A stretch of DNA of 64,000 bases, from positions 6,076,001-6,140,000 of the forward strand of contig NC_092406.1 of assembly GCF_009017415.1 (NCBI RefSeq), written 5' to 3'. Positions 44,762 to 61,326 of the stretch are shown in pieces (position 1 is the stretch's first letter; the number at the start of each line of letters is the position of its first letter). The position numbers and the translations under genes are program-made. This DNA comes from Aspergillus flavus. Taxonomy: Eukaryota > Ascomycota > Eurotiomycetes > Eurotiales > Aspergillaceae. A model generated the notes under the pieces. It was not told the origin of the DNA, did not search any database, and was given only the letters and a program-made list of their open reading frames with translations.

Positions 44762-47107
44762 TCACGGCCTATTCTTATCATACCACTCCTGAACGACCTC
44801 ATCAATGTGCGCCCGGAACTTCTCCTGCTTCTTTAGTGGTGCAAACGACTCCACGATAACATTGACAATACTCTCAGCGTCAACTAGTCGAATTCCGTCT
44901 TTACGATAGCCCTCCAGATCCTCTTTTGTCGGGAAAGTATAATAGTTACTCTCCTCGGCCTTCTGCGGAACATTGGATAGCTCCTTTCCTCGGGCGATAT
45001 TATCACACACATCAACTGCCATCTTTGCCCCCATTTTATAAACATCGTTCATGAAATGCAACATCGACTTGGAGTAGTCAATAGGATGGTGACGAACGTC
45101 AATGAGATCACCTGCGTCCCAGTCCTCGTCGATGTCATGGAGGGAGTACCCGAAGAATTTCTCTCTGTTCTTCATAGCTCGGACAGTAGTCATGACTCCC
45201 CGGTAAGTGGGAAGAACACCCGGGTGTAGGTTGAGCAGTCTTTTGGGCCGGGCGAAGTAGCGGATGATATCTGTCTTGAACCTCTGGTAGCAGCGCAACG
45301 AGAGCCCCACGTCGATATGGTGTTTTCGAAGAGTATTGATAAAAGACGCACTATTGACGTTGGGGACTTCCTGCACGAGGATCCCATAAGCGTCTTTCAT
45401 CTGCTCGATTGTCATGTGTGGTGCACCGTTAGGTTTCTCATTCTTGAAGTACGGGATGACGTGTTTTTGCAAGAGCTCTCGCTCGAAGAATGTCAGTTCC
45501 CGGAGCTCGAAGGGCGGAGTGGTCTTGCGGTTTGCTTTGTGTACCGGGAGGAAGATGAAGGGCGTGTGACCGGCGGCTAGGAGCTGGGGTACTAGTGTAC
45601 TGGCCATGAGGTGCGAGAAGAGGTCGCTTCCTAGGAAGATTGCAATGTGTAGGGGACGTGCGGTGGGCTCGTCCGTTATGGCATCTGCGATCCGGGCCGC
45701 GTGGGCAGCGACGCGGTCAATGGCACTCACGTAGAAATGGGTACCTCTGGTAAGAGACCCGATGACATGCAAGCCCTCTGATGCACGCAGACTGTCAAAG
45801 TCGACGGCCACGCCGCCGGCAGGGTGAGGTTTGAGGAGCCCCTTCTCCACTGCGGATTGAATCAGCGGTGATTCAATTCGGTCGAGTTGGCATTCTTGTC
45901 CGGTGGCCTCGATCACATAGGGAGCTTCTAGAAGTCCGATGGAGGTCTGTGCTTTATAGATACCGTCCCATTGTACTCTGTCACCTTGGACTACCTGTAG
46001 CTGTCCTTTCCTCAAAAGACCGAGTATTTTCTCGGCATTTTGTATCGGCATTCCGTGGCGGTACCTCATCCAGGGACTGAAAAACTTGTCCATAAAAAGC
46101 TGCTGGCTTTTCGCAGGTAGGCCGTTCCAGTAGCGCTCGATAACAGGCGCTGTGCCTCGCAGCACTTTCTGCCATTCAACCTTGCCGGTCTTTGCAGCTT
46201 GGATGTCGTGTTCCAGCTGTTTCACAGGAGATTCATCATTGTGGAGCCAGCCCCAGTCGCCGTTGGTAGCGTGGAAGATCTCCTCCATCAAGCTGCTCGT
46301 TACTTGCAGCAAGTTCTCATCAGAATTCTCTTCGATATGCTTTGCAAGATCATGCAAGACATAGCGTCGGGAAAACGGCGTCGTGTCTCCCTGAACCTTG
46401 GGCAAACTGCCGCTACGCGACATAAAGGTAATGGGCCCCTGATGGCCATGTTCCGAGAGGAAAATAGCCGCATCCACAGCAGACAATCGTGAACCGACAA
46501 CAAGAACAGAAGCATCAGTCGGGATCGTCTTGAGCTGCGATGTCGGCCACGGACCGGGGAAGAACCCGGGTAAATTGATAAGATGAGTATTGCACACCGA
46601 GGTAAAGTTCCCCAGCGCCAAGACGACAGACTTCGCTGTCAATTGCGTGCCATTCCGAAGACTCAAAGTCATTGTACCGTCAGCCTGTCGATCAATGTCG
46701 TGTGCCTCGTCTTGAATCACGGAAACCCCGAGTCCGATATGTTGAGCTTCCTCCAACGCCTGCCCCCACGTTTCCTGGAGATATTGGCCATATCTCGCCC
46801 GAGACGGGAATGGCCCACTTTCTTGGTCTGTGCGCCATTGACTGAAATGGAGGGGTTTGTCGTGATATAATCCCATCGTGTCGGTGTGCATGTTGAGGAT
46901 GGTCCCCTCACATTGCGATGAGTATGGAAGACCCGGTCCGGGGAGGCCATTCTTTTCCACGAAGATTACTTCTCCAAGGGCTTTCCCGTTCTTGACTCGC
47001 TCGATCAACTGAAGAAGAATTGCCACTCCACTTGCTCCGCTTCCTACCACAATGAGGTCATTGGCGGGAGGGGAGGGAGTAGAAGGGTGGGATACTGCTG
47101 AACCCAT
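44762..47107 (-). CDS. Fused FAD/NAD(P)-binding protein and formyltransferase (781 aa)
   Basis: One uninterrupted exon. Residues about 16-475 form a two-Rossmann flavoprotein module of the FAD_NAD(P)-binding type: VVGSGASGVAI (Gly22, Gly24, Gly27), GPGLPYS near residue 57, ILNMHTDTMGLYHDKPLHFS, a second nucleotide loop VLVVGSRLSAVDAA near 201, EATGQE near 400 and HVIGSLTRGTHFY near 447. Residues about 484-781 form a formyltransferase domain: PLHIAIFLGSDLFSHLMAS, LLNLHPGVLPTYRG, then LHDIDEDWDAGDLID. The expected catalytic Asn626, His628 and Asp664 are all present, so formyl transfer from 10-formyl-THF is likely. The flavin half resembles N-hydroxylating monooxygenase-like proteins only at family level. 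It is divergently paired with an MTD1-like gene. Product unknown. Confidence 0.88.
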   Translation of the reverse strand: MGSAVSHPSTPSPPANDLIVVGSGASGVAILLQLIERVKNGKALGEVIFVEKNGLPGPGLPYSSQCEGTILNMHTDTMGLYHDKPLHFSQWRTDQESGPFPSRARYGQYLQETWGQALEEAQHIGLGVSVIQDEAHDIDRQADGTMTLSLRNGTQLTAKSVVLALGNFTSVCNTHLINLPGFFPGPWPTSQLKTIPTDASVLVVGSRLSAVDAAIFLSEHGHQGPITFMSRSGSLPKVQGDTTPFSRRYVLHDLAKHIEENSDENLLQVTSSLMEEIFHATNGDWGWLHNDESPVKQLEHDIQAAKTGKVEWQKVLRGTAPVIERYWNGLPAKSQQLFMDKFFSPWMRYRHGMPIQNAEKILGLLRKGQLQVVQGDRVQWDGIYKAQTSIGLLEAPYVIEATGQECQLDRIESPLIQSAVEKGLLKPHPAGGVAVDFDSLRASEGLHVIGSLTRGTHFYVSAIDRVAAHAARIADAITDEPTARPLHIAIFLGSDLFSHLMASTLVPQLLAAGHTPFIFLPVHKANRKTTPPFELRELTFFERELLQKHVIPYFKNEKPNGAPHMTIEQMKDAYGILVQEVPNVNSASFINTLRKHHIDVGLSLRCYQRFKTDIIRYFARPKRLLNLHPGVLPTYRGVMTTVRAMKNREKFFGYSLHDIDEDWDAGDLIDVRHHPIDYSKSMLHFMNDVYKMGAKMAVDVCDNIARGKELSNVPQKAEESNYYTFPTKEDLEGYRKDGIRLVDAESIVNVIVESFAPLKKQEKFRAHIDEVVQEWYDKNRP

Positions 47108-47882
47108 GGTAGAAGGTGTTGAGCTCTTGTGGTGGAGATACCATTGATCGGAGGTTTTATATCAGCAGGAGGCCACTCGTTTATATGCCTTCGTGCGGAG
47201 AAAAACTGATGCATTTCGAAGAATGAGGGGCAATTGGAGAAAGAGACACGAGAGCATTATGACCAAAGGAGGGGTTGTGTCGCGAACATGCCAGGATCTT
47301 CTCCGTATAGATGATGCCAAGAGCCAGCGGGGTTTCGAAACTCGTCCATCAGATGGATAGAGATGGGCCGTCACTGCGACATCTGGCGTCAGCATTGCTG
47401 CCGCGTGCTGCTATGACTCGTTGTCAGTAAAGAAGCCAGCCGCTGAGGGAGGGGAAGATCAGTGGATCACGTCTACGTGGACGAAGGGCCAGCTATTGAG
47501 ATCATTAGCTCGCCACCTCCATTGTTCCAGACATCCATGGACGGCTAGACGGTCTTGCACGGAGTCCGAAGTGGGGTGTTCGACATCCCAATAGTTCCAT
47601 ATTATCGCTCTGTAATTGGGGCTGATCACGCATGACTCGGTATAGGGATGCTTTGGGCATGGTATTGGTCCGATTGCAGGGCCTAGACAGTGGAAGACTT
47701 CACATCAAGATGTCCGCAGGCAAGAGGTGTACGCGTACTTCTTGACGCTGGATCCTACAGCTAGATTATGGTATTTTAAAGGCTGACTAGACCGCGGAAG
47801 TCTACCGTCGTTGCTTCCGCTTACACTGGCATTGATCATCCACTCCATTCTCAAACCGACAAGGCGTACCAAAATCCTCACA
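47108..47882. promoter_or_regulatory. Shared divergent promoter of the fusion and MTD1-like genes
   Basis: 775 bp separate two divergent start codons (47107 minus, 47883 plus). On the minus strand a TATAAAA at 47155-47161 lies about 50 bp before the fusion gene's ATG. On the plus side a TTTTAAA lies about 108 bp before the other ATG. No ORF of substance is present. The arrangement suggests co-regulation of the two folate-linked genes. Confidence 0.5.
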
Positions 47883-48937
47883 ATGGCTCCACGCGTTGGC
47901 GAAACTATTCAGCCGGATGATCTAGCCAAAAGGGCACATAGCCAGATCTCAGAAATACTGACTAACACCCCAAAGCGACTCTTTCTCATGGGCGTCTTGG
48001 CCAGCGATGATGCTGGCTCTAATCAGTACGCAAACTGGACTCGCAAAACCTGCCAAGAGATGTAAGCCTGACACAGTACGCCAAGAAGGATGTCAACCCA
48101 TATCACTGACACGCATGCTTAGCGGAGTGCATTTCCACCTGATGAAATTGTCACCCAAGAATGTGGCAACCTATATCCGGGCAATCAACGCCAACAACAG
48201 TGTCCATGGGATCATTGTGTACTATCCGATTTTCGGTGACCGGAGAGATGACGAGATCCGACAGCTTGTCGCGCCTAGCAAGGACGTAGAAGGACTCAAT
48301 CATCAGACCTTGCACCGGATCTCCGATGCTGCAGAAGTGTCCAGACCACCAAAACCGGGACGAAACGTTATCCCCTGCACGCCAAGAGCCGTTGCGTGGA
48401 TCCTGGAATGGATGGACGTGCATGATCGGACACGGCCCGCAGGGGAGCGATTACAGAACCAAGAGATCTGCATCATTAACCGGTCTGAAGTGGTGGGGTT
48501 GCCACTGGCGCATTTACTCGCGGGGGAGGGCGCTCGCGTCTACAGCGTGGACATATCCGGTGTCCAGCTCTTCCAACGCTTGTACTATCCTTGGCAGTCC
48601 GAAGCACTGCACGGAAAGGATCTCCCCAACTGGAGTGTGCAGGACGCCGTGCAGCGGTCTCGAGTGGTCATCTCGGCGGTTCCAGATCCCGCATTCAGGG
48701 TGAATACGAAGTGGCTTCAGCGCGGCGCCATCTGTGTCAACGTTTCTTCAGAAAAGGTACGTGTCTTGTAGTATGGAATTCGCCAGAATCAGGTCTTGAA
48801 TCGTTCCCGCTAACCATAATCGACAGAACTTCGAGGCTAATGTGGTAGAGGTGGCGTCCAAGTTTGTCCCGCGCGTTGGCAGTGTCACAATCGGCGCTCT
48901 CCTGTATAATCTCATCCTATGTTCGTCACGGAACTAG
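47883..48937 (+). CDS. MTD1-like NAD-dependent methylenetetrahydrofolate dehydrogenase
   Basis: Exons 47883-48061, 48123-48756 and 48827-48937, with GT-AG introns of 61 and 70 bp, give 307 aa; yeast Mtd1 is about 320. The folate/catalytic segment is YANWTRKTCQEIGVHFHL, containing the conserved Tyr and Lys. VHGIIVYYPIFGD, SKDVEGLNHQ and VIPCTPRAV follow, then the NAD-binding ICIINRSEVVGLPLAHLLAGEGA. The end (FVPRVGSVTIGALLYNLIL) is also conserved. The enzyme oxidises 5,10-methylene-THF to 5,10-methenyl-THF, one step from the 10-formyl-THF used by the formyltransferase divergently encoded next door. Whether this is the only copy in the genome (housekeeping) or a cluster-specific paralogue cannot be told from the window. 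Confidence 0.9.
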
Positions 48938-52963: not shown

Positions 52964-54142
52964 CTACCTAGAAATATGAGAAAGCACTTTAAGAAGGTCA
53001 CTCGACACACCCATAGCAGTCACATCACCCCCAGCACCCGCTCCCTGAACGATGAGCGGATTATCGCCGTACCGCTTCGTATAAAAGCTAATAAGATTAT
53101 CACTCCCCTGTAGCGCCGCGATAGGATGCGTTTTCTCAAACGACTCTATTCCCACCTTGACCTGGCGAGAGGCCATATCGATACTTCCAACAAAACGCAC
53201 AAACTTGCCCTCCTTTTCGGCCGCTGCCTTGTGCTGTTCCATTTGCTGGTCAAATTCCGGAAGACGGTCAAGAAATTCGTCTCCACTTGACACTCCTTGC
53301 AACTCCTGAGGAATTAGGCTCTGAACAGGGAATGATGTTGGGGATTCGATAGGTAACCCCGCTAGCCGACCGAGAATGGTGAGCTTGCGAGCGACGTCGA
53401 GACCGTTTAGATCGTCGCGCGGGTCAGGCTCCGTATAACCTAGCTGTTTGGCCTTGCGGACGGCAACGGACCATTTCTCTCCTTGGCCCTCTGTTGGAGC
53501 GAAGGAGTTGAAAAGGAAGGACATTGTGCCGCTGAAGACACCTTGGATGCGCGTGATCTCATCACCGGTAATAATTAGATCCTTCAGGGTGGAAATAATG
53601 GGCAAGCCAGCACCAACGGATGATTCATGAAAAACGTAAGAGTGTCCGGCAGCCGCAGAGCTGAAGATATCTTCCCATAGTTGGTAATTTCCGGAAAAGG
53701 CCTTCTTGTTGGGAGTGATGATGCTGATTCCGCGACGTAGGAACTGTGGATACGCTTCTGCAAGACTGTTGGCGCTGGTGTTGTCGACGAGTATCACCTT
53801 GGATGGGGCGCCGGAGAGATAGTCGATGATCCAGGGGATTGTAGGTGGTGCTTGGCCCTCTGCTTCGAGTCTGTCGAGGGCGGTTTCGATGTTGATCTCT
53901 GAGTAATCGGGGTGGTGGAGGGCCTTGTCGATGATTGCGATGTAGCATAGGCGAAGACGGGGAGAAGGGCGTGTCTTGCTTAAGTATGATAGTTGTTTCA
54001 GGAAACATGAGCCCACTCCGCCGGCACCTGTTGTTTGTTAGTTGTCAGCTATGGAGTTGATGGGGACGGATTTCTGTATGATGGGATGGAGTATCTACTC
54101 ACCGATAACGGCAATGTAAACTTCCTCTGTGGTAGTAGCCAT
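52964..54142 (-). CDS. HOM6: Homoserine dehydrogenase
   Basis: Exon 1 (54142-54103) encodes MATTTEEVYIAVIG and a 75-bp GT-AG intron joins it to exon 2 (54027-52964), giving 367 aa; yeast Hom6 is 359. The join completes the NAD(P) loop VIGAGGVGSCFL. The family motifs VDNTSAN, GISIITPNKKAFS, HESSVGAGLPIISTL and IQGVFSGTMSFLFN follow, then the catalytic region LGYTEPDPRDDLNGLDVARKL with the conserved Asp and Lys. The end carries VQGAGAGGDVTAMGV. It reduces aspartate semialdehyde to homoserine in the threonine/methionine pathway, in the cytosol. No sign of cluster membership. The symbol is by homology to yeast. Confidence 0.95.
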
Positions 54143-54850: not shown

Positions 54851-56450
54851 ATGCAGCTGAATGATCCGTCCCTACTCCATGAGGCCTCATTGCTCAATGG
54901 TGAATGGGTTGCGGCCCAATCCAACAAAAGGTTTGATATCGAAGGCGAGCCTACCACTCTACCAGTACCAATCCGTTACTTGCTAACCAAGGTTGTCTCT
55001 TACAGACCCCGGTTCAAGACACGTTTTCGCAACCTGCCCCACGAACGGTCCAGAGGATGTGGACAAATACGTCGAGACCTCGCATGCGGCCTTCGAACGC
55101 TATCGCCATGTCAACCCACGCGAACGAGCCAAGTTCCTTCTGAAATGGCATGAGCTGATTACAAAAGCCCGAGAAGATATCGCTACAATCGTGGTATACG
55201 AGACCGGAAAGCCCATGGCCGAAGCCTTAGGCGAGGTAGACTACGCACTGGGGTTTGCCTGGTGGTTCGCGGGAGAGGCCGAGAGAGTCCGCGGATCTAT
55301 TGCGTTGCCTTCAGTCTCCAACCGTCGCACATTTGTCATAAAACAACCTATTGGCGTGAGTGCGGCTTTAGTCCCATGGAACTTCCCGGTTGCTATGATT
55401 GTTCGTAAAGTGGCAGCAGCTTTAGCTGCAGGATGCACTATGATTGTTAAACCATCCCCAGAGACTCCTTTGAGTGTGATGGCCTTAGCAGACCTTGCTC
55501 TTCGCGCGGGTTTAGCACCTGGTGTTCTCAATGTTATTACAACTGATAATGAATACACACCGTCCGTCAGTGAAAGGCTTTGCAAGCATCCTTTGGTGCG
55601 CAAGGTAACCTTCACAGGCAGTACAAGGGTGGGAAGCATTATTGCAAAGCATTGCAGCGAGGGACTCAAGAAAGTTACCATGGAGCTTGGGGGAAATTGC
55701 CCGTTCATTGTCTTTGACGACGGAAACTTGGAACAAGCAGTGGCTGCCCTGATGATCCTCAAATGGCGTACCGCCGGCCAAGCCTGTACCCATGCCAACC
55801 GAGTCTATGTCCAAGCGGGTGTCTACGATAAGTTCGCCCAGATGATGCTAGAAGCGACTCAGAAACTCAAGGTCGGTCACGGAACTGATTCGGGTACCAC
55901 CATGGGACCACTTACGACCGACCGTGGCGTTGAGAAGTTGAAGAAGCTTGTGTCTGATGCGATCAGCAAGGGCGGCAAAGTTCTCTGCGGTGGAAAGCAA
56001 CCGAATGGCCCTCAAGGATATTTCTTCGAGCCTACTATCATCTCCGGTATGACTTCTGAGATGCTGGCATCTCAGGAAGAGATCTTCGGGCCTCTGTTAG
56101 GGTTGCACAGGTTTGAGACCGAGGAGGAAGCTGTCAAGATGGCAAATGACACATCTATGGGTTTGGCCTCGTACTTCTTTACTAAGGACATTGATCGGAC
56201 CTGGAGACTTCTTGAAAGTCTCGAGGCTGGCATGATTGGCATGAACACAGGTATGTTGTGCTTTCTTTGTTGGATGGCTGTGGTTTGAGCACTGACAGTT
56301 TGACTAGGAAACTCTTCGTGCGCTGAGTCTCCGTTCGGCGGCATTAAGGAGTCAGGATACGGCAAGGAGGCAGGCAAAGATGTCGCTATCGAAGAGTATC
56401 TGATCTCTAAGACCGGCACGCTTACTGTGGAGGGTGCGCCGGGGCCATAG
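54851..56450 (+). CDS. Succinate-semialdehyde dehydrogenase-like aldehyde dehydrogenase
   Basis: Exons 54851-54944, 55006-56250 and 56308-56450 give 493 aa. The first intron has a GC donor (AAG then GCGAGC at 54945) and an ordinary AG end. Only this join gives FDIEDPGSRHVFATCP in frame. Motifs: VPWNFPVAM and KPSPETPLS (cofactor), FTGSTRVGSII, the general base in MELGGNCPFIVF, the nucleophile Cys in TAGQACTHANRVYV, and the ending SPFGGIKESGYGKE. The layout matches the GabD/SSADH subgroup rather than betaine aldehyde dehydrogenase. There is no targeting sequence, so it is probably cytosolic. It could act in GABA catabolism or on another semialdehyde; the family does not fix the substrate. Confidence 0.88.
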
Positions 56451-56880: not shown

Positions 56881-58556
56881 ATGAGTCCAAGTAGGTCCAC
56901 CCGCGAAAGCAGCAAGAGAAAGCTGGATAGCACAGATGACGACCAGGAGAAACGGTATGTTTCTACCACAGTCATGACTATGTTCTACCACTCAATAGCC
57001 ATTTCGTAGGAAACTCCGGAATCGCCTGGCTCAGCGGGCATTTCGTCGTCGACAGGCGGAGTATTTGAGGAACCTCCGGGATCGTGCCGACTCAGGAGAT
57101 CGACCGCAGAATGAGATTATCCATGCGCTGCGGGAGGAAAATGCACGTCTTCGAAGACAGCTTGTTGATGTCCAGTCGAAGCTGTCTAGGGTTATCACGA
57201 CGATGCAGGCTCTGTCTGGTTCCGTATCGTCTGTACTTGATAAACCATCACAGGTTGCATCTACAGACAAGGTGGAGGCGACTGAGTCACCATCTTCGAG
57301 ACAAGAAACTCCTAAAGACATAGATGTGGCTATCGCAGCCGATGATTATCCCAAATTGGACACATCTACCTCCAGTGCCACTCACACCATCTTGATACAA
57401 AACCAATCGTCAGGTCTAGACGATCCCGTGGACATCATGCCTCAAACCCTCAATCAAGGTCTAGCGAGATCTGATAACTCATTTCCAGAGTTCAATCATG
57501 ATATCCTTGCCCTGGAAAGTCTCACACCACATACAAATAGCTTGAGCCACCAGCTACCGAACATCTGGTCTTTCGAATATCAGATGGGCCTGCAGCCGTA
57601 CGTGAATGCCCTAACCTCCAGCCAACAATTCAGCGTCACACTGGGCAAGGATTGGACAGAATCCAATTCCCCATTCTCGGACCACATTCAAGTACTTCAG
57701 AAATTATTGAAGAATAGATTGGATCTCATTAGACCGTTATTCCAGCCTTCTCCACAGCTGTGAGTTTTCCCGAAGTGTATTCACCCTTGAACATACTGCT
57801 GATCATCCTGTCGGCAGCCTCTACCAACAGGTCCTCATGGTCCTTTCCCTGTTCAACAGTATAACCCGACCGGACGTTATGGCGTGGTACGCAAAGACGC
57901 GTTTCTACCACATTGTCGACTTGACAGCGTGGCAGATCTATCCCTGCACAGGGACATTAAGCAAGGTCCACCAGCAATACAGACCCACAGAAGTACAATT
58001 ACAACAACAATACCCCCGGGTCATTGACTGGATACCATTCCCCACGATCCGAAACCGACTCATTCGACTACACGCAGCCAATCCCCAGATCGACCAAATA
58101 TTCTGCGACACCGTCAGCAGCTACGTCGTCGAAGCAAACATGGCCGATCTCATAATGGGCGCTCCTGCTGTAACGGCCTACATCCGAGTAACCGACGTGA
58201 TCGCGAATATCCCCTCAACTACACCAGGAAGTGACCCTGAGCCGTCTGCTATGCTTCCAGCCCCGGACGCCGATACTCTTTTCTCGTCCCCGGAATACGC
58301 TCGAGCTGTGTTTAAAAAACTGGATATCGATCGTGGGATATCACATTATAAGATGGATCCTGCTTTCTTCGGTACATACCCCGAACTCTATGACCCAAGC
58401 GTTGATATTGCAGCGAAGGGGATTCCACTTAGACCGGATGTACAATTGCGCTTGACGTATCCTAAGCCTCTTGATTCTTCGACGTTTCAAACTTACCGCA
58501 GCTTTATGGACTTTTCTCTGTATGCTCCGTTAAGTGTGGCGCAGGGTTTTAGGTGA
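56881..58556 (+). CDS. bZIP transcription factor with DUF3425 C-terminal domain
   Basis: Exons 56881-56954, 57010-57759 and 57818-58556, with 55- and 58-bp GT-AG introns, give 520 aa. The basic region is split by intron 1 and reads RKLRNRLAQRAFRRRQ, the Yap/Pap1-type pattern N-X2-AQ-X-AFR. A leucine-zipper-like coiled coil follows (IIHALREENARLRRQLVDVQSKL). A polar middle region leads into the DUF3425 domain with VLMVLSLFNSITRPDVMAWYAKTRFYHIVDLTAWQI and YPRVIDWIPFPTIRNRLI. This architecture is common in Aspergillus regulators of stress or specialised metabolism. The targets are unknown; no adjacent gene suggests one. Confidence 0.9.
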
Positions 58557-59241: not shown

Positions 59242-60969
59242 TCACGGCCCGCTCATAAGAATTGCCCCCTTCCTAATCTCCCTGGCCAGATACTCAGCCT
59301 TGGCATCCGCAGACCCTCCCGGCGATTCTGAGCTCTCCATGCCATTCCCCGATTCCAACGGAAGATGCAGCAACGTGGCGACACGCAGGAACTGGTTGCA
59401 GATCCACTCCCGCTGTCCAGGTCTAAGAAGACTCGCTATCACCTCGCCGTGATCTTCCGAGAAGAGCGCCAACAAGCGGCTCAGGGGGTGCATGGCGCGC
59501 CACGGCCCCTGCGCAATGACGTGGCGCCTGTGGTCATCTCTCGATATGCCATCGAAAACCTCCCTGTCTAGTGGTGTGCCGTCTACCAATGCATTATAGC
59601 TGGGAAGCAAAACCGTCGGGTCAGTGAAATCGGCGAGACTGGACCGGCTGATTCGGTTGCCGAGGTGGAAGGGTATGCTGTGGCACACGCTGTCGACCAG
59701 TTCTTGGAGTGTTTGTTGGCAGTTGACGAAATCTGTGGGGTCACCGACAAACTGCCCGTATGCAAGGCCAAAGCGGCTCAGATCGGAGAATGCATTGAGG
59801 GAGCCGAGTGTGATCTTGGCCAGCAGGAGGCGTTGAAAGCGCCATAGATTCCAGATGCTGGCAATTTGGCAGGAAGGATACACCTCACAGATAGATTGGT
59901 AGGTGGGTATGGACAAATCGATATCCCGACCACTTATCAGCCTTACCGGTCTCCAGTGATCCGGTACATTTTCCGCCCACGCTAGAAGCTCTGCATCAAC
60001 TCTCTTGGCATCGGCCATCCACTCCTTCGGAACGCACTTCAACGATGTTGCGGAGCCACCCTGTGTCAAAAACTCCGTGTAGCTGGCCTGCAACTCGGCA
60101 ACGGACGTCCCTATGGCATCGAGTGCTGCGCTGGGGTTTTCTGGCACAGCCATCGTTTCCTTGCTCCTAATCCATGAGTATGCGATCCTCTTCAGTGGCT
60201 TTTTCTGACGTATCGCGGTCGAAACCTCGGTATGTAGCATAAACCTTCGTAAGTAGGCGCGCACCACCCCGCCCATATCGTCCGAGCCCATAAACGAGAG
60301 CAAAGATGCTGCACCATTGTGGTGCGTACTTGAGACACGGCGAAGACCATATACCGCCGAGGCATTCTCGTAAGTCTGCAGCGCCAGCACGGCCAACACC
60401 GTTGCCGGCTTGCCACGTTCTATAGGATCCTGTATTGCGGTTTGAAGGCGTGTGAGTGCCCGGGAATAAGACTTCCGTGGTGATCGGAAGCTCGTGGCAT
60501 CTTGTCGCCACATGGACAAGGTCTCTGAAGCCAACGCTGACACGGCGAGTGAGAGGGCCGAATCTTCCCGCTCCGAGAAATATGCTGGAATGAGCATTTC
60601 GAAGAATCCGCGCGTGGACCCCATATCGCGGCCCATGCTGGCGTAATGGCCGAGATAGAACTGCACGGCGGTGTCGGGCTCAGAGGGCCGCCGCAAAGTC
60701 AAAGCCCTCACAACCTCCCGGTCCTGGACATTAGACTCAGGCGACCGACCGGGACTACTTGTTGCAACCTTCATGACATCTTGTTTGGTATTGGTGCAAA
60801 ACTTGTGGTTCTGATCTTTGAACTTTAGTTTGGTATTCTGGTGCCTGTTGTAGCCTCCGCAGCGAAGCTTAAGGCGCTGGCACGCTTGGCACTCGGGCTT
60901 TGCCTCGTCGCATTTAACGCGGCGTTGCTTGCATGTCACGCAGCCTCCGGAGCGTCCGCGGTTAACCAT
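59242..60969 (-). CDS. Zn2Cys6 transcription factor (575 aa)
   Basis: Single exon. The DNA-binding domain is at the extreme N-terminus with Cys at residues 10, 13, 20, 27, 30 and 37 (C-X2-C-X6-C-X6-C-X2-C-X6-C), followed by a basic linker (NRHQNTKLKFKDQNHK). The remaining 500 residues are mostly helical, including FYLGHYASMGRDMG, ALSLAVSALASETLSMW and VLAVLALQTYENASAVYG. This is the usual shape of the fungal-specific (Fungal_trans_2 type) regulators. It is divergent from the Ayg1-like hydrolase, with 357 bp between start codons, and is the likely local regulator of that gene and the ORF at the window end. Confidence 0.9.
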   Translation of the reverse strand: MVNRGRSGGCVTCKQRRVKCDEAKPECQACQRLKLRCGGYNRHQNTKLKFKDQNHKFCTNTKQDVMKVATSSPGRSPESNVQDREVVRALTLRRPSEPDTAVQFYLGHYASMGRDMGSTRGFFEMLIPAYFSEREDSALSLAVSALASETLSMWRQDATSFRSPRKSYSRALTRLQTAIQDPIERGKPATVLAVLALQTYENASAVYGLRRVSSTHHNGAASLLSFMGSDDMGGVVRAYLRRFMLHTEVSTAIRQKKPLKRIAYSWIRSKETMAVPENPSAALDAIGTSVAELQASYTEFLTQGGSATSLKCVPKEWMADAKRVDAELLAWAENVPDHWRPVRLISGRDIDLSIPTYQSICEVYPSCQIASIWNLWRFQRLLLAKITLGSLNAFSDLSRFGLAYGQFVGDPTDFVNCQQTLQELVDSVCHSIPFHLGNRISRSSLADFTDPTVLLPSYNALVDGTPLDREVFDGISRDDHRRHVIAQGPWRAMHPLSRLLALFSEDHGEVIASLLRPGQREWICNQFLRVATLLHLPLESGNGMESSESPGGSADAKAEYLAREIRKGAILMSGP

Positions 60970-61326
60970 TGCGACAGCGACGGTGCCGGAAAAGGAGATC
61001 TGGTTGCGATGGATGGGTAAAGTTAAGTAACTTTATCGTAAAGCGTGCACAGCCGAGTTACAGCAGTGAGCTTACTCGTACTTATAATAGCAGTGGCTCG
61101 CGGGCGCGACCAATCAGAGGACCCCGTCGCAAAACGCTTACTCGATGTGGTTTAGCCTGGGAAAGGCCTAATGACGTAGAACGACTTGTGCCCTAATTGC
61201 CGCCTATATCGATATAAGAAGTATAAGAAGAAGAGATGGAACACAAGAAAAAAGAGAAATCAATCAGAAACAACCGGTATAGTCATCACAGTTCTTTCAA
61301 GTTCTCTTTTTACTTCATTATTTGCC
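60970..61326. promoter_or_regulatory. Divergent promoter of regulator and Ayg1-like hydrolase genes
   Basis: A 357-bp region between divergent start codons. A CCAATCA box at 61110-61116 is a candidate CBC site. The plus-strand leader before 61327 is A/G-rich, then CT-rich, as in many fungal 5' UTRs. Confidence 0.45.

What the first reader, a model, noticed from the sequence alone, without database searches (positions are those of the whole stretch)
44762..47107. Single-chain flavoprotein plus formyltransferase fusion
One intact 781-residue ORF joins a two-Rossmann FAD/NAD(P)-binding module (GxGxxG at 22-27, second nucleotide loop near 201-212) to a complete formyltransferase domain with Asn626, His628 and Asp664 in place. 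In bacterial hydroxamate siderophore pathways, N-hydroxylation and N-formylation are done by two separate proteins (PvdA and PvdF types). A single polypeptide doing a flavin step and an N-formyl transfer would be a compact route to an N-formyl or N-hydroxy-N-formyl product. The chemistry is inferred from domain types only; the flavin half belongs to a broad group whose members are mostly untested.
Basis: partly seen in the sequence, partly recalled or inferred. Interest (0 to 1): 0.8.

Follow-up and report, generated by a model that had tools for sequence, protein, structure and literature searches.

The report
Likely one-protein hadacidin synthase
A mould gene joins two enzymes, one predicted to add oxygen to a nitrogen atom and one to cap it with a formyl group, and related bacterial gene clusters suggest that together they make hadacidin, an old Penicillium antibiotic for which I found no published gene.

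Summary
The fusion is real: one 781-codon frame on the MINUS strand (44762-47107), a PF13454 flavoprotein joined to a PF00551 formyltransferase with Asn626/His628/Asp664, in an old family of many fungi. The flavin half folds most like the aspartate N-hydroxylase FzmM, better than PvdA/SidA, but lacks FzmM's aspartate-binding arginines. Next door, divergent, is an extra methylene-THF dehydrogenase gene (47883-48937), a likely one-carbon supply; the pair appears linked in six further species, including Penicillium frequentans, the classic hadacidin source. In seven of seven Streptomyces-group loci the two activities are separate adjacent genes with an MFS transporter. In four of these a second adenylosuccinate synthetase gene lies beside them; 20 of 20 control genomes have one copy. 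That enzyme is hadacidin's target. Best reading: a bifunctional amino-acid N-hydroxylase/N-formyltransferase, most likely making N-formyl-N-hydroxyglycine (hadacidin). The chemistry is inferred; no product or activity was seen. The fungus has one adenylosuccinate synthetase locus, so self-resistance there is unexplained. In several fungal lineages (black aspergilli, Cordyceps/Beauveria) the formyltransferase half has decayed while the flavin half stays intact.

The parts
44762..47107 (-). Fusion gene, single exon, 781 codons plus stop
   Evidence: full-length homologues, several of exactly 781 aa
45668..47107 (-). Flavin half, residues 1-480: PF13454, class B N-hydroxylase fold (FAD domain, NADP domain, helical substrate domain)
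44765..45658 (-). Formyltransferase half, residues 484-781: PF00551, N626/H628/D664 intact
47108..47882 (.). 775-bp intergenic stretch, shared upstream region of the two divergent genes
47883..48937 (+). Extra methylenetetrahydrofolate dehydrogenase gene (307 aa by my exon model); exons 47883-48061, 48123-48756, 48827-48937
   Evidence: two other PF02882 loci lie elsewhere in the genome
49264..50586 (-). MFS transporter frame; membership in the system uncertain (convergent with the dehydrogenase; no sequence match in three Streptomyces loci)

Best explanation
The protein is a two-step enzyme. Step 1 (inferred): the flavin half, using FAD, NADPH and O2, hydroxylates the nitrogen of a small amino acid, most likely glycine. 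Step 2 (inferred): the formyltransferase half moves the formyl group of 10-formyl-THF onto the resulting hydroxylamine, giving an N-formyl-N-hydroxy amino acid, most likely N-formyl-N-hydroxyglycine (hadacidin). Fusing the halves would trap the reactive hydroxylamine before it is oxidised again. The divergent extra methylene-THF dehydrogenase supplies one-carbon units (inferred), and an MFS protein may export the product (weak). My confidence is about 0.85 in the general N-hydroxylation plus N-formylation chemistry and about 0.65 in hadacidin or a close relative as the product.
Against: No activity or metabolite was seen. The fungal genome shows a single adenylosuccinate synthetase locus, so no resistance copy is visible in the fungus; S. 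klenkii and S. roseoverticillatus also show one, and S. natalensis has only a weak second match elsewhere. The resistance-copy clusters also hold NRPS parts (an NRPS protein in 3 of the 3 scanned, a carrier-thioesterase protein in the fourth), so their product may be larger than hadacidin. I know of no report of hadacidin from this Aspergillus group. The fungal MFS frame has no sequence match in three Streptomyces loci. Substrate residues are not settled: E324 and R465 of the fungal proteins are not shared by the Streptomyces-type ones, and the tree does not resolve the two groups as sisters. For fungi outside Aspergillus/Penicillium with an intact fusion (lichens, Aureobasidium) no close dehydrogenase paralogue is among the 120 of 376 hits listed.
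Confidence: 0.65

Rival explanations
1. Same two-step chemistry but a different amine: the product is another N-formyl-N-hydroxy compound (for example of alanine or a longer amino acid), perhaps an aspartate mimic other than hadacidin.
For: The bacterial clusters with adenylosuccinate synthetase also carry a malic-enzyme-like gene (4 of 4) and NRPS parts (NRPS in L029, L030, L031; carrier-thioesterase in L028, L029, L030), so the building block may differ. The fungal and bacterial flavin halves differ at several positions (313, 324, 464, 465).
Against: P. frequentans, the classic hadacidin source, carries the gene pair.
Confidence: 0.2
2. The halves do unrelated steps of a pathway: the flavin half is an oxidase or reductase, and the formyltransferase acts on a plain amine, as sugar formyltransferases do.
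For: PF13454 members are mostly untested (recalled); the best sequence hits of the C half in the PDB are sugar N-formyltransferases.
Confidence: 0.1
3. It is the aspartate N-hydroxylase of 3-nitropropionate synthesis carrying an idle formyltransferase tail.
For: Same fold class; Aspergillus species make 3-nitropropionate (PMC10404684 section 9).
Against: The genome has a separate close FzmM relative on contig C2 (921 bits to 8cp2). FzmM's Arg13, Arg409 and Arg412 align with S26, E324 and W327 here. The formyltransferase triad is intact here and its half is better conserved than the flavin half among intact members.
Confidence: 0.02

Closest known systems
FzmM-type L-aspartate N-hydroxylase (Streptomyces sp. 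V2, PDB 8CP2/8CP5, PMC10404684)
   Same: Three-domain class B flavin monooxygenase fold, FAD and NADP loops, Asn above the flavin (N72), T-x-G-x-H stretch (T453, G455, H457)
   Different: The aspartate-binding arginine cluster is not kept at Arg13, Arg409 and Arg412; a formyltransferase is fused on; identity 22-23% by fold
PvdA/SidA ornithine N-hydroxylases with PvdF-type formyltransferase (PvdF recalled)
   Same: Same chemical logic: N-hydroxylation then N-formylation with 10-formyl-THF
Methionyl-tRNA and sugar N-formyltransferases (Fmt, ArnA, WlaRD)
   Same: Formyl_trans_N domain and Asn/His/Asp triad; Fmt fold
   Different: 13-18% identity in the Fmt and 10-FTHFD rows by fold; different acceptor expected
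Hadacidin formation in Penicillium (older feeding work recalled, not seen)
   Same: Product would need one N-hydroxylation and one N-formylation of glycine
   Different: I found no gene assigned to it in the held library

Membership tests
Class B N-hydroxylating monooxygenase, FzmM-like (PF13454) | FAD GxGxxG and second nucleotide-binding Rossmann | tested here: met
   PF13454 111 bits; motif rows; model
Class B N-hydroxylating monooxygenase, FzmM-like (PF13454) | Overall three-domain fold with helical substrate domain | tested here: met
Class B N-hydroxylating monooxygenase, FzmM-like (PF13454) | Flavin-facing Asn62 equivalent | tested here: met
   N72; also in 7 of 7 Streptomyces-type and 19 of 19 other PF13454 rows, so generic to the family
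Class B N-hydroxylating monooxygenase, FzmM-like (PF13454) | N-hydroxylase activity | not testable with these tools
   needs assay
L-aspartate N-hydroxylase proper (FzmM, fungal 3-NPA enzyme) | Aspartate-site arginines (Arg13, Arg409, Arg412) | tested here: not met
   S26, E324, W327 at those places; residue roles from PMC10404684 section 8
10-formyl-THF N-formyltransferase (PF00551) | Domain above curated cut-off and Asn/His/Asp triad | tested here: met
   41.1 bits against 26.1; N626, H628, D664
10-formyl-THF N-formyltransferase (PF00551) | Fold | tested here: met
PvdA/SidA/IucD family (PF13434) | Closest profile and fold | tested here: inconclusive
   PF13434 24.0 bits, just over its cut-off 21.3; fold Z lower than FzmM
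Hadacidin pathway | Gene pair present in known producers | tested here: met
   P. frequentans tags N7513_001245 and N7513_001246; for P. crustosum only the dehydrogenase paralogue was listed by name
Hadacidin pathway | Link to its target adenylosuccinate synthetase | tested here: inconclusive
   adjacent in 4 of 7 bacterial loci; the only fungal locus is far from the window gene
Hadacidin pathway | Hadacidin as product | not testable with these tools
   needs metabolite and deletion data

The most novel reading that the evidence does not exclude
This is hadacidin synthase: one polypeptide that turns glycine into a purine-synthesis antibiotic in two steps, with its own one-carbon supply gene; the same module exists unfused in Streptomyces, where a spare copy of the antibiotic's target enzyme sits beside it in some strains, and several fungal lineages have let the formyltransferase half decay while keeping the N-hydroxylase, implying a second, unknown N-oxidised product.
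Probability: 0.55. Interest if true: 0.85.

Novelty: new variant of a known kind. Interest (0 to 1): 0.78.

Why it matters
Hadacidin has been known since about 1962 and is a standard ligand of adenylosuccinate synthetase, yet I found no gene for it in the held literature. A single gene to delete or express makes that question directly testable, gives a minimal enzymatic route to N-formyl-N-hydroxy amino acids, and offers a marker for clusters whose product attacks purine synthesis. The lineages with a decayed formyltransferase half offer a natural experiment in how a bifunctional enzyme loses one function.

Tried and rejected
Siderophore reading: no NRPS, acyltransferase or siderophore gene was recognised among the 20 window frames scanned with Pfam (only longer frames of the window, introns not modelled), so I do not favour it for the fungus.

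Self-resistance copy in the fungus: looked for, not found; one adenylosuccinate synthetase locus only. Hadacidin is described as weak on some fungi (PMC5488104 passage), which may be why none is needed, but that is inference.

3-nitropropionate enzyme: rejected, see rivals.

MFS as a conserved part: the window's MFS frame gave no tblastn match at E 0.01 in L016-L018; kept only as uncertain. The homoserine dehydrogenase, aldehyde dehydrogenase and class II aldolase frames nearby were not tied to the system.

Apparent bacterial fusions: one search listed open frames of 532-862 aa around the formyltransferase in four genomes; one search shows the flavoprotein in a separate open frame in all seven loci, so I found no bacterial fusion.

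Apparent closer stand-alone formyltransferases: 16 of the 21 hits are 43-69% identical to the query but align from inside the flavin half (13) or inside the formyltransferase half (3), as pieces of the fusion family would; their organisms are not told, so this is inferred.

Literature: hadacidin/biosynthesis (25 papers listed), hadacidin/Penicillium, hadacidin/formyl, N-hydroxyglycine and hadacidin cluster phrases (none on point by title), N-formyl-N-hydroxy/Aspergillus (not opened), 3-nitropropionic acid, adenylosuccinate synthetase/self-resistance (3 listed), fusion chemistry (none). The library lacks most subscription journals, so the gene may be in print.

Papers: PMC10404684 abstract/outline and sections 7-9; PMC6136348 outline and passages; PMC5488104, PMC7290882, PMC12616698, PMC8502122, PMC6973190 passages only. 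Hadacidin's chemical structure, the 1960s feeding work, the PvdA/PvdF comparison, the section name Flavi and the NAD-type monofunctional reading of the dehydrogenase (beyond names such as 'methylenetetrahydrofolate dehydrogenase [NAD(+)]' given to its homologues) are recalled, not from a call.

Full report
OBSERVATION. The frame is present as described, on the minus strand: ATG at 47107, stop at 44762, 781 aa. Pfam gives PF13454 (20-167) and PF00551 (589-699), both above cut-off. The window lies in a 37.7-Mb, 8-contig genome. By its relatives (A. pseudocaelatus 93%, A. bombycis 91%) it is an Aspergillus of section Flavi; the species is inferred.

AN OLD FUNGAL FUSION. 98 proteins matched; P0002-P0075 (74) are the fusion family, with named members in Aspergillus, Penicillium, Paecilomyces, Talaromyces, Cordyceps, Beauveria, Metarhizium, Aureobasidium and lichen fungi; 70 of the 74 are 673-896 aa and 4 shorter. 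The other 24 align over 28-62% of the query and carry flavin-half domains only. I aligned 46 (the query and 45 of the 74). 30 of 46 show the letters N-H-D; I put two of these (P0049, P0064) by hand with the decayed set because their surrounding motif is lost, giving 28 intact and 18 altered. Some altered ones (P0068, P0069, P0071) differ at one triad position only.

BACTERIAL LOCI. Those led to three named loci, S. klenkii, S. roseoverticillatus and S. natalensis, and a search of 392 genomes of the genus of S. klenkii found 6 with a match: klenkii, roseoverticillatus and four unnamed. In 7 of 7 loci the flavoprotein lies directly upstream of the formyltransferase on the same strand (28-32% and 31-38% identity to the two fungal halves). 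An MFS gene is present in 7 of 7. A family search gave two adenylosuccinate synthetase loci in each of these four genomes, one in each of 20 control genomes without a formyltransferase match, one in klenkii and roseoverticillatus, and a second weak one (184 bits, elsewhere) in natalensis. A spare copy of a target enzyme in a cluster is a usual sign of self-resistance. The known natural inhibitor of this enzyme that would need one N-hydroxylation and one N-formylation is hadacidin (structure recalled; target and P. frequentans origin from passages of PMC6136348 and PMC5488104).

ONE-CARBON SUPPLY GENE. Upstream of the fusion, divergent across 775 bp, lies a gene that I model with three exons for a 307-aa methylene-THF dehydrogenase. 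The genome has two other PF02882 loci, one in an 849-aa frame like a C1-THF synthase and one like the ordinary dehydrogenase; the latter is about 34% identical to this one in a tblastn alignment that runs over introns. In a tree of 48 rows (47 of the hits, over 240 aa, and the query) it falls in a clade of 24 with SH-aLRT 100, whose named members are all Aspergillus or Penicillium. No species named for an altered formyltransferase half appears in this clade among the 120 of 376 hits listed (names are those of cluster representatives).

DECAYED LINEAGES. Among 18 altered members the flavin halves are 54% identical on average but the C halves 34%; among 28 intact ones 52% and 59%. The flavin motifs largely stay. 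Parsimony needs at least 5 changes of state on the flavin-half tree, so loss happened repeatedly unless regain occurred.

SHARED SIGNATURE. At 12 positions at least 93% of fungal rows and 6 or more of 7 Streptomyces-type rows agree while 4 or fewer of 19 other PF13454 rows do (A25, M73, Q239, G240, E276, D301, T319, A401, F437, T453, H457, Y459). E276 is of little weight, because 17 of the other rows have a gap there. Fungal fusions and Streptomyces-type proteins are each one clade (SH-aLRT 99 each), but the tree does not resolve that they are sisters.

MECHANISM. Shown: gene, domains, intact motifs, folds, neighbours, bacterial pairing, target-gene pairing. Inferred: NADPH/O2 N-hydroxylation of a small amino acid, formyl transfer from 10-formyl-THF to the hydroxylamine, glycine as substrate, hadacidin as product. 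Against: a single fungal adenylosuccinate synthetase locus, NRPS parts in the resistance-copy clusters, no resistance copy beside three of the seven bacterial pairs, no metabolite data.

VERDICT. This is a new variant of known enzyme kinds with a sharply testable claim.

Noticed in passing
18 of 46 rows of alignment A1, e.g. P0026, P0027, P0041, P0043 (Cordyceps/Beauveria type) and P0032, P0034, P0037 (black aspergilli): The formyltransferase half has lost its triad or motif and, in most, much of its sequence, while the flavin half is intact; at least 5 changes on the tree.
   Followed up: partly
P0024, Metarhizium rileyi: The flavin half of this insect fungus nests within Penicillium sequences: gene transfer or contamination.
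   Followed up: no
L007 100-2148, minus (own genome contig C2, near 485054): A close relative of the FzmM aspartate N-hydroxylase (921 bits to 8cp2), a candidate 3-nitropropionate enzyme of this fungus.
   Followed up: partly
window 52967-54037, minus: One of two homoserine dehydrogenase loci of the genome, near an aldehyde dehydrogenase frame (54987-56285) and two regulator-like frames (57711-58553, 59245-61032).
   Followed up: no
L028-L031: Unnamed Streptomyces-group clusters with malic-enzyme-like gene, spare adenylosuccinate synthetase, flavoprotein, formyltransferase, MFS and NRPS parts: candidates for an adenylosuccinate synthetase inhibitor.
   Followed up: partly
PMC12616698 passage: A published Hypoxylon PKS-NRPS cluster is said to carry an adenylosuccinate synthetase homologue too; unrelated to this finding as far as seen.
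   Followed up: no
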